DNA of 64,000 bases, from positions 124,001 through 188,000 of the forward strand of contig JANFAH010000010.1 of assembly GCA_024663395.1 (NCBI GenBank). Reading direction: 5' to 3'. This DNA is from Pisolithus tinctorius. Lineage: Eukaryota; Basidiomycota; Agaricomycetes; Boletales; Pisolithaceae. This document shows positions 11,572 to 12,423 of the stretch, piece by piece. How positions within the stretch are numbered: position 1 is the stretch's first letter; every line of letters begins with the position of its first letter. Position numbers and translations under genes: made by a program. A model generated the notes under the pieces. It ran no database searches and was not told the origin of the DNA. It worked only from the letters and a program-made list of their open reading frames with translations.

Positions 11572-12423
11572 CTAGGTCTCATAGGACTGGGTGAACCAGT
11601 AGAAATTCCTTGAGACCTCCCACTGGACCACTGTCAGGCCAACCACGTTGTCAGCCACATGCTCCACCACTTTGATCAGATGCTCCATCTGATCACCGGT
11701 GACAGGGCTGGCCCCAGTCTCTTTGCCAACCTTTTTTGTCGATGGTCCCTTGCCCACGTCTTCGTCCTCATCACTGGCACCCTCGAGTACTTTGGCAGAT
11801 GGCTGCCTCAATCTCTTCTTCTTCTCCCCAGTGTGAGGGGAGGTCATGTTGGCCTTCCTCTTCCCCTTGTCCCCAGCTGGCCCAACACCAGCCTCACCTT
11901 CAACTGGCCACTGGCAGCACTCTTTGAGCTCGTTGCACCAGTTGCAAGCCATGCGCTTCTTCTTGCTGTCGGTGCTGCGCACACAGGTTGTGTTGGTCCA
12001 GGCGCATCGAAGGCAGCTGGTGGAATGTTAGTTGAAGAGCACTGGTAATGACCAAAATAGGACTTACCAAGGATTCATCACCTTGATGTTAGAACTGGCC
12101 CCGGTCAAACTACCCACCAGGGCATCAGCCCACTGGCTCTCAGCCTCCTTTCTGGCCTCCTCAGCCTTGCATGGAGCCTCTAGTCTCTGCACCTCAGCCT
12201 CTGTGCATGCCCTCTCCTCTTCGAGCCAGGCCTGCTCCTGCCTCTCAGCCTCCAACTGGGCTTCCTCCTGCACCCTAGCCTTGCGCCTCTTGTGTTCAGC
12301 CAGCTTTCCCCAGATGGCCTCGTCATCGTTGTCGCTGCCTACCTGCAGCTCTGCACTCGTCGCCTGGGTCAGGTCAGGCAATAGGTCTTGGTCGTAGGGT
12401 GTTCTGGACCAGTGAATAGACAT
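11572..12423 (-). pseudogene. Antisense zinc-cluster/coiled-coil ORF of element B
   Basis: Reads against the element between pol and the 3' LTR, starting MSIHWSRTPYDQD about 130 bases from the LTR. Exon 1 (to about 12064) has an acidic segment and a roughly 70-residue Glu/Ala/Arg coiled coil. A short intron (GTAAGT near 12060 to CCACCAG near 12013) leads to CLRCAWTNTTC and, 12 residues on, CNWCNELKECCQW (11908-11946): C-x2-C-x6-C-x12-C-x2-C-x6-C, the Zn2Cys6 spacing. A Lys-rich stretch and a C-terminal domain (QMEHLIKVVEHVADNV) follow. I know no name for the family. It looks almost intact; I type it as a pseudogene because expression and the exact end are unsure. Confidence 0.7.

What the first reader, a model, noticed from the sequence alone, without database searches (positions are those of the whole stretch)
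11572..12423. Gypsy retrotransposons carry an antisense gene for a Zn2Cys6-like, coiled-coil protein
Families A (1600-2275), B (11572-12423) and C (26316-27527), plus a reverse B relative (48100-48960), have an ORF on the opposite strand between pol and the 3' LTR. All share the order acidic N-terminus, Glu/Lys/Arg coiled coil, short intron, Cys triad C-x2-C-x6-C-x-W, Lys-rich tail. A and B have two triads 12 residues apart, which is the spacing of the fungal Zn2Cys6 DNA-binding cluster (C-x2-C-x6-C-x5-12-C-x2-C-x6-8-C). Conservation of the triad across diverged families argues that the protein matters. A retroelement carrying its own Gal4-type regulator, driven from near the 3' LTR, would be a new kind of self-control, or a way to act on host genes.
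Basis: partly seen in the sequence, partly recalled or inferred. Interest (0 to 1): 0.87.

Follow-up and report, generated by a model that had tools for sequence, protein, structure and literature searches.

The report
Retrotransposon antisense gene with zinc-cluster motif
Jumping genes in the mushroom Pisolithus tinctorius carry an extra gene, written backwards between their enzyme genes and their right-hand end, whose protein is kept by selection and resembles a fungal gene-switch protein, which hints that these elements may carry their own regulator.

Summary
The antisense gene is real. In Pisolithus tinctorius, Gypsy families A, B and C encode, opposite to gag-pol and 120-195 bp inside the 3' LTR, a two-exon protein: acidic N-terminus, long coiled coil, six-cysteine cluster, Lys-rich tail, second helix. 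Selection acts on the antisense frame: omega 0.33-0.35 in B and A, against 1.1-2.6 in four other frames; the mirror sense frame gives 0.44-0.54, and a joint test favours antisense. The six Cys are kept in 154 of 156 (B) and 121 of 126 (A) codons. Corrections: 11572 is a premature stop, relatives run to about 11386; intact C copies have two triads; the 48100 relative lacks the cluster. Pfam Zn_clus stays below cut-off and its partial matches suggest swapped triads. Best reading: an HBZ-like nuclear accessory regulator with a variant zinc cluster. Transcription, zinc and DNA binding are untested. Unexpected: the gene is the most divergent part of the element.

The parts
5494..13128 (+). Full-length Gypsy (chromovirus) element B
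   Evidence: LTRs 93% identical over 574 bp; 5-bp target duplication CAACA; gag, protease, RT/RNase H, integrase SH3 and chromodomain Pfam matches
5494..6067 (+). B 5' LTR
12555..13128 (+). B 3' LTR
6475..7491 (+). B gag
   Evidence: PF03732 E 1.3e-10, PF19259
7650..8345 (+). B protease region
   Evidence: PF08284 E 1.9e-6
8318..9592 (+). B reverse transcriptase / RNase H
   Evidence: PF00078 E 3.4e-36, PF17919, PF17917
10538..11206 (+). B integrase C-terminus with chromodomain
   Evidence: PF24626, PF00385
12068..12423 (-). Antisense gene B, exon 1 (ATG at 12423; acidic N-terminus, coiled coil)
   Evidence: 148 genome matches; omega 0.31 all pairs, 0.35 separate pairs; helix 31-105 of the homologue P0001, pLDDT mostly above 85
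12017..12067 (-). Antisense gene B intron, 51 nt, GTAAGT..CTAAC..CAG
   Evidence: 1 of 30 intron indels is a multiple of 3
11572..12016 (-). Antisense gene B, exon 2 up to the premature TAG of this copy
   Evidence: omega of exon 2 0.34
11914..12015 (-). Six-cysteine cluster C-x2-C-x6-C-x12-C-x2-C-x6-C-x-W
   Evidence: six Cys kept in 154 of 156 codons of 26 copies
11386..11571 (-). Rest of exon 2 behind the premature stop; coding in relatives
   Evidence: tblastn of P0001 runs to 11389; stop at the corresponding place in relatives
12424..12554 (.). 131-bp interval between antisense ATG and 3' LTR, with the polypurine tract; presumed antisense promoter or 5' UTR
   Evidence: 131 bp in 22 of 25 measured B copies, 126, 130 and 132 in the other three; divergence 0.086
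1570..2233 (-). Antisense gene A (decayed copy)
   Evidence: tblastn with P0072; two stops
26391..27527 (-). Antisense gene C (decayed copy)
   Evidence: tblastn with P0191; relatives L055, L056 with both triads
23254..24518 (+). RT of element C, 60% and 72% identical to B RT in two stretches
27722..28423 (+). C 3' LTR, repeated at 19513-21116 (interrupted 5' LTR)
   Evidence: blastn
48145..48863 (+). Antisense gene D (B relative, Cys cluster missing)
   Evidence: P0069

Best explanation
SHOWN: Gypsy chromoviruses of Pisolithus carry, on the strand opposite to gag-pol and between pol and the 3' LTR, a two-exon gene with one short intron for a protein of about 330-370 residues, kept by purifying selection on the protein itself. 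INFERRED: antisense transcription starts in or just inside the 3' LTR. The spliced mRNA gives a protein that dimerises by its long coiled coil, enters the nucleus by its Lys/Arg-rich stretch and binds DNA (or possibly element RNA) through a variant, triad-swapped Zn2Cys6-like cluster, with acidic ends as contact surfaces. It most likely acts on the LTRs of its own family to set expression or copy number, as HBZ does from the antisense strand of HTLV-1. Selection seems to act while elements replicate, not after a copy has landed. The gene is the most divergent part of the element, which fits a family-specific partner such as the family's own LTR, a rival element or a host silencing factor.
For: Copies: 148, 150 and 150 matches for B exon 1, A exon 2 and C exon 2 (150 scored each). 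Omega, CpG-controlled: B 0.33 over 325 pairs of 26 copies, 0.35 over 13 separate pairs, 0.34 over 12 of them with codon bootstrap 0.28-0.42; A exon 2 0.33 and 0.34, bootstrap 0.28-0.40; four other frames 1.1-2.6. Changes silent only in the antisense frame are 2.6-2.8 times, those silent only in the mirror sense frame 0.6-0.7 times the neutral expectation. Exon indels multiples of 3 in 66 of 83, intron 1 of 30, downstream of the stop 40 of 109 (not independent; 8 more could not be assigned). In the same elements gag 0.41, RT 0.23, integrase end 0.34. Six Cys 154 of 156 (B), 121 of 126 (A). Lys in the second triad 195 of 195. Omega by distance bin: 1.37 (2 pairs), 0.57 (6), 0.33 (17), 0.33 (76), 0.30 (175); the 49 pairs beyond 0.3 were not binned. 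Coiled coil and second helix with high pLDDT. Divergence 0.19-0.22 over most of the gene against 0.09-0.13 in gag and 0.12 in the 3' LTR; fourfold sites 0.27-0.31 against 0.13-0.17.
Against: No RNA data; the public models may be ab initio. Pfam Zn_clus scores 10.2 and 13.6 bits, below the cut-off of 21; 18 of 109 members match at E up to 1, best 0.026. AF2 is unsure of the cluster (block pLDDT 40-68); Foldseek found one PDB match, E 8.7; PDB sequence searches found no zinc cluster protein. CGG/CCG palindromes in the ATG-LTR interval are no commoner than in random stretches of the same loci. The mirror sense frame also has omega below 1 (0.40-0.54). The closest-pair bin has 12 changes. The omega method is home-made and pairwise. 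A 5' LTR was found in only 7 of 20 long loci. In non-CpG context the raised silent divergence is clear for exon 2 (0.31) but small for exon 1 (0.17 against 0.14 in the integrase end). D lacks the cluster.
Confidence: 0.5

Rival explanations
1. The ORF is the mirror of a constrained sense-strand reading frame or of a sense RNA structure.
For: The sense frame that shares wobble positions also has omega below 1 (0.44 in B spliced, 0.40-0.51 exon by exon, 0.50-0.54 in A exon 2), and A has a 173-aa + strand ORF there (1839-2360).
Against: Changes silent in antisense but not in sense are in excess (2.6-2.8x), the reverse class is depleted (0.6-0.7x). The sense mirror frame averages 6.1 stops a copy against 1.0 and would need removal of an intron whose GT..AG signals are on the antisense strand.
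Confidence: 0.03
2. A nucleic-acid-binding accessory protein for the replication cycle (RNA packaging, chaperone, nuclear import of the pre-integration complex), not a transcription factor.
For: Cys cluster with long Lys-rich tail; Vicient and Casacuberta suggest accessory roles like those of retroviral accessory proteins for plant antisense ORFs (PMC7264820, parts 1 and 2 of 3). Omega is low between distant copies and not in the closest pairs.
Against: Gag of B already has a CCHC knuckle (read by eye). Cluster spacing and invariant Lys resemble a DNA-binding zinc cluster more than a knuckle. Antisense placement separates it from Gag-Pol translation.
Confidence: 0.27
3. Anti-silencing factor against the host (or a factor against rival elements), diversifying in an arms race.
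For: The gene is the most divergent part: A and B share 86% of RT residues (one A element), 73% of gag residues over 169 aa but 34-35% of the antisense protein; silent divergence is raised about twofold, as expected if old alleles are kept and shuffled between elements.
Against: Overall omega is low and no site-wise test of positive selection was made; a local mutation rate could raise silent divergence; distance matrices of gene and RT still correlate (r 0.46-0.57).
Confidence: 0.15
4. Only the antisense RNA matters (dsRNA or siRNA trigger); the protein is incidental.
For: Antisense transcripts with noncoding activity are known for retroviruses (PMC10186651, abstract and passages).
Against: Constraint is codon-specific in both exons, Cys are kept, exon indels mostly keep frame.
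Confidence: 0.03

Closest known systems
Antisense additional ORFs between pol and 3' LTR (aORF-3R) of plant elements: Grande gene23, RIRE2, Retand ORF4, PvRetro13 (PMC7264820)
   Same: Place and orientation; conservation like other element proteins; nuclear function suspected (Grande GENE23 is told there to be nuclear and transcribed antisense)
   Different: No zinc cluster is mentioned there; the features named are an SMC domain (PvRetro13) and a transposase-28 domain (Retand). Sequences were not compared here
brtn of Boty / BcGypsy1 in Botrytis cinerea (Zhao et al. 2011; seen only as cited in PMC7264820 and PMC8365987)
   Same: Antisense gene in a fungal Gypsy element
   Different: Ascomycete; protein sequence not at hand, so homology was not tested
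HBZ of HTLV-1 and APH-2 to -4 (PMC10186651, abstract and passages)
   Same: Spliced antisense gene read from the 3' LTR side; HBZ is a nuclear dimerising regulator of its own 5' LTR
   Different: bZIP or no such domain, not a zinc cluster; a retrovirus; transcription and function shown there, not here. Works like, not a relative
Fungal Zn2Cys6 transcription factors (Gal4 type; PMC5559640, passages)
   Same: Two C-x2-C-x6-C triads with 9-12 residue linker, Lys at the Gal4 Lys18 place (numbering recalled), basic flank, coiled coil
   Different: Triads seem swapped, coiled coil in front instead of behind, Pfam score below cut-off, encoded by a retroelement
Pisolithus tinctorius gene models named hypothetical protein or Zn(2)-C6 fungal-type domain-containing protein (M404DRAFT and BKA82DRAFT series)
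   Same: They are this protein
   Different: The names do not tie them to retroelements

Membership tests
Ty3/Gypsy chromovirus (the carrier) | LTRs, target duplication, gag, protease, RT, RNase H, integrase, chromodomain | tested here: met
   (integrase core matched in element C, chromodomain in B)
Antisense aORF between pol and 3' LTR | ORF on the opposite strand, between pol and 3' LTR | tested here: met
   3' LTR beyond the antisense ATG in 19 of 20 long B loci; RT on the opposite strand in window B and C and in A element L075
Antisense aORF between pol and 3' LTR | Conserved like other element proteins | tested here: met
   omega 0.28 and 0.33 (exons 1, 2) against gag 0.41, RT 0.23, integrase end 0.34
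Antisense aORF between pol and 3' LTR | Present in most copies of the family | not tested
   copies were found by the antisense gene, not counted from the pol side
Antisense aORF between pol and 3' LTR | Antisense transcription | not testable with these tools
   no RNA data
Zn2Cys6 binuclear cluster family (PF00172) | Six Cys in two triads with a 5-12 residue linker | tested here: met
   C-x2-C-x6-C-x12-C-x2-C-x6-C in 161 of 190 models P0001-P0190; a looser pattern in 20 of 64 models P0191-P0254; kept at DNA level
Zn2Cys6 binuclear cluster family (PF00172) | Profile match above Pfam cut-off | tested here: not met
   10.2, 13.6 and 12.8 bits against 21; 18 of 109 members match at E up to 1, best 0.026
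Zn2Cys6 binuclear cluster family (PF00172) | Triad order (DNA-contact triad first) | tested here: not met
   First triad aligns to profile 16-38 in two B proteins, second to profile 1-14 in one A protein; all weak
Zn2Cys6 binuclear cluster family (PF00172) | Gal4-like fold | tested here: inconclusive
   low pLDDT in the cluster; no useful PDB match
Zn2Cys6 binuclear cluster family (PF00172) | Zinc and CGG-DNA binding | not testable with these tools
   a search for CGG palindromes gave nothing above chance

The most novel reading that the evidence does not exclude
A lineage of fungal chromoviruses has, in effect, an HBZ of its own: a triad-swapped zinc-cluster transcription factor read from the antisense strand, carried by hundreds of copies in at least three families, that recognises its own family's LTR and diversifies faster than the rest of the element, so that each family has a private self-regulator (an immunity-repressor-like system) and the host genome is flooded with transposon-made gene switches.
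Probability: 0.3. Interest if true: 0.87.

Novelty: new variant of a known kind. Interest (0 to 1): 0.67.

Why it matters
Antisense genes between pol and the 3' LTR have long been described, but PMC7264820 says that their roles have not been determined. This family offers hundreds of copies, protein-level selection, a defined six-Cys cluster and coiled coil, and a testable idea: a retroelement that makes its own DNA-binding regulator. It also shows that many 'Zn(2)-C6 fungal-type' and hypothetical gene models of a mycorrhizal genome are retroelement cargo and should not be counted as host transcription factors.

Tried and rejected
Rejected: mirror-ORF reading (joint test). Rejected: chance ORF (omega, stops, indels). 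Tried without gain: CGG/CCG palindromes as target sites in the ATG-LTR interval. B copies show CGG-N11-CCG in 2 of 25, L053 (A) CCG-N5-CGG, L055 (C) several, L051, L052 and L054 none, L056 was not delimited; 46-80% of random stretches of the four loci with a site have one too, so no claim is made. CCGG is enriched in element B (43 against 13.5 expected), in gag-pol as well as in LTRs, so it is no evidence for binding sites. AF2 with 50 and 109 sequences left the cluster unsure; Foldseek against PDB gave one match at E 8.7; PDB sequence searches gave nothing of use. No homologue outside Pisolithus among the hits listed in three protein searches (complete, another the best 120 of 179); these need shared 5-residue words, so remote relatives in other mushrooms are not excluded. 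Literature: no report of a zinc-cluster antisense protein in a retroelement in the listings (titles and starts of abstracts; open-access papers only); the word antisense does not occur in two papers on LTR elements of Boletales and of fungi (PMC5689174, PMC3248453; term search). PMC2447501 gave only references.

Full report
WHERE IT IS. The window is G000:C10:124001-188000 of a 92.5-Mb assembly. Contig lengths 6,547,381 and 2,371,960 of that assembly are those given for Pisolithus tinctorius proteins P0065 and P0133, so the host is this ectomycorrhizal basidiomycete. Element B spans 5494-13128: LTRs of 574 bp at 93% identity, target duplication CAACA, gag, protease, RT/RNase H and integrase end with chromodomain: a Ty3/Gypsy chromovirus. 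Element C has an interrupted 5' LTR, RT at 23254-24518 (60% and 72% identical to B in two stretches) and its 3' LTR from 27722. Of 20 long B loci fetched, 19 have a 3' LTR beyond the antisense ATG and 7 a 5' LTR within the stretch; of five with LTR pairs checked, four have identical 5-bp target duplications and one differs by a base.

THE GENE. On the minus strand of B the ATG lies at 12423, 131 bp from the 3' LTR. Exon 1 (356 nt) ends at a GT donor; a 51-nt intron with CTAAC and CAG follows; exon 2 gives the six-Cys cluster. A splice model with the cluster pattern in frame was found in 24 of 30 B loci; the other six were not examined one by one. Twelve of the 30 run to the shared stop without interruption, one of them with ATA for ATG (my count). 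The same design is seen in A (L051-L053) and C (L054-L056) (C exon borders not fixed). Public gene models, most from another assembly of the species, have the same spliced proteins: 74 hits to B, 179 to A (120 listed), 64 to C; the hits listed are from Pisolithus. The exact pattern C-x2-C-x6-C-x12-C-x2-C-x6-C is in 161 of 190 models P0001-P0190 and in none of 64 C-search models, 20 of which fit a looser pattern. Some C models lack the cluster, as if the gene caller had spliced it out or ended early.

IS IT CODING? Twenty-six of 30 B loci were aligned (L005, L023, L027, L028 left out for large insertions or truncation). I compared each observed difference with the chance that the same kind of change, with CpG status, would be silent elsewhere in the same two sequences. 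Omega in the antisense frame is 0.33 (325 pairs) and 0.35 (13 separate pairs); the mirror sense frame 0.44; the other four 1.1-1.7. For A exon 2 (21 copies: 3 picked as open, 18 taken from the hit list) it is 0.33 and 0.34, mirror 0.50 and 0.54, others 1.2-2.6. The joint test decides between the strands: changes silent only in the antisense frame are 2.58-2.80 times expectation, those silent only in the mirror frame 0.58-0.70 (325 pairs and 12 separate pairs). Stops per B copy: 1.0 antisense, 6.1 mirror, 5.0-23.8 in other frames; 15 of 26 have none in the antisense frame. Exon indels keep the frame in 66 of 83 cases, intron indels in 1 of 30, indels behind the stop in 40 of 109 (shared ancestry means these are not independent). 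In the same elements gag gives 0.41 (7 copies), RT/RNase H 0.23 (12), integrase end 0.34 (17), antisense exons 0.28 and 0.33 (21 and 14). The gene is thus under the same kind of selection as the element's own proteins. Omega is 1.37 in the 2 closest pairs (12 changes) and 0.57 in the next 6, which fits selection before and decay after insertion but rests on few changes.

THE CLUSTER. In 26 B copies the six Cys are kept in 26, 25, 26, 25, 26 and 26; in 21 A copies in 19, 19, 21, 21, 21 and 20. Neighbouring positions mix Arg with Cys, His, Trp or Gln, the mark of CpG loss in Arg codons, while the six Cys stay. In all 195 models with C-x2-C-x6-C-x-W the eighth residue is Lys, although that pattern did not ask for it. 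In Gal4 Lys18 contacts the guanines of CGG (PMC5559640, passages); that it sits at the same place is from recalled numbering. Pfam Zn_clus is the commonest match of 109 members but weak (18 members, best E 0.026), and the partial matches put the first triad on the second half of the profile (two B proteins) and the second triad on the first half (P0080). I therefore call it Zn2Cys6-like with triads probably swapped, not a member. The Gal4 DNA-binding part has a coiled coil behind the cluster; here it stands in front, residues 31-105 of P0001, with a second helix at 226-275. The cluster itself is not modelled with confidence.

AN UNEXPECTED RESULT. Along element B, mean divergence between copies is 0.09-0.13 over gag and most of pol (0.14-0.18 around RT/RNase H), 0.19-0.22 over most of the antisense gene (0.14-0.17 at its ends), and 0.12 in the 3' LTR. 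At fourfold sites in 11 copies it is 0.31 and 0.27 in exons 2 and 1 against 0.13-0.17 in gag, RT and integrase end (gag in fewer of them); outside CpG context 0.31 and 0.17 against 0.09-0.14, so the case is strong for exon 2 and weak for exon 1. Between A and B the RT is 86% identical (one A element, L075), gag 73% over 169 residues (the A gag being that of the inverted neighbour at 209-1081, assigned by its LTR), the antisense protein 34-35%. A module with older alleles than its surroundings, perhaps exchanged by template switching, or a local mutation rate, could give this. Distance matrices of RT and gene still correlate (r 0.46-0.57), so exchange is not proven.

HOW IT PROBABLY WORKS. The layout, an antisense gene starting near the 3' LTR with coiled coil, basic stretch and Cys cluster, is that of a nuclear regulator expressed apart from gag-pol. 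HBZ of HTLV-1 is the model: antisense, spliced, nuclear, dimerising, acting on the 5' LTR (PMC10186651, abstract and passages). Antisense genes at this place are known in plants and in Botrytis, function undetermined (PMC7264820, parts 1 and 2 of 3; PMC8365987, passages). Transcription, zinc, DNA binding and target are inference here. My search for CGG-type sites in the interval gave nothing above chance.

VERDICT. It is a new variant of a known kind: an antisense accessory gene of a Gypsy element, in this case with a variant zinc cluster under strong selection and with marked diversification.

Noticed in passing
window 5494-13128: CCGG is the most over-represented 4-mer in element B (43 against 13.5 expected), with its CpG-decay forms CTGG and CCAG about twofold up; window 40000-64000 shows CCGG 18 against 28.8. 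Unexplained.
   Followed up: partly
window 9244-9544: A second, smaller divergence peak (0.16-0.18) over RNase H among B copies.
   Followed up: no
window 2733, 5924, 12985, 36418, 54185: A 75-bp stretch with a core like CAAGGGAATAG and GCTAAGTCCAA recurs at five places, at least three of them in LTRs of families A and B (family D20; 65-87% identity to the reference copy).
   Followed up: no
window 3257-5491 and 13129-14508: Element B is inserted in a stretch of long inverted repeats (up to 598 nt, 90-97% complementary).
   Followed up: no
P0068 and L023: A public gene model of 441 aa joins the antisense exon 1 of this copy to a Gag-like protein; probably a nested insertion.
   Followed up: no
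L001-L030 introns: By eye, introns of B copies fall into at least three hardly alignable types while exons stay alignable, which also points to old allele lineages of the gene.
   Followed up: partly
genome C5/C103, C5/C107, C31/C52: Matches with the same scores on two contigs suggest that the assembly holds both haplotypes in part.
   Followed up: no
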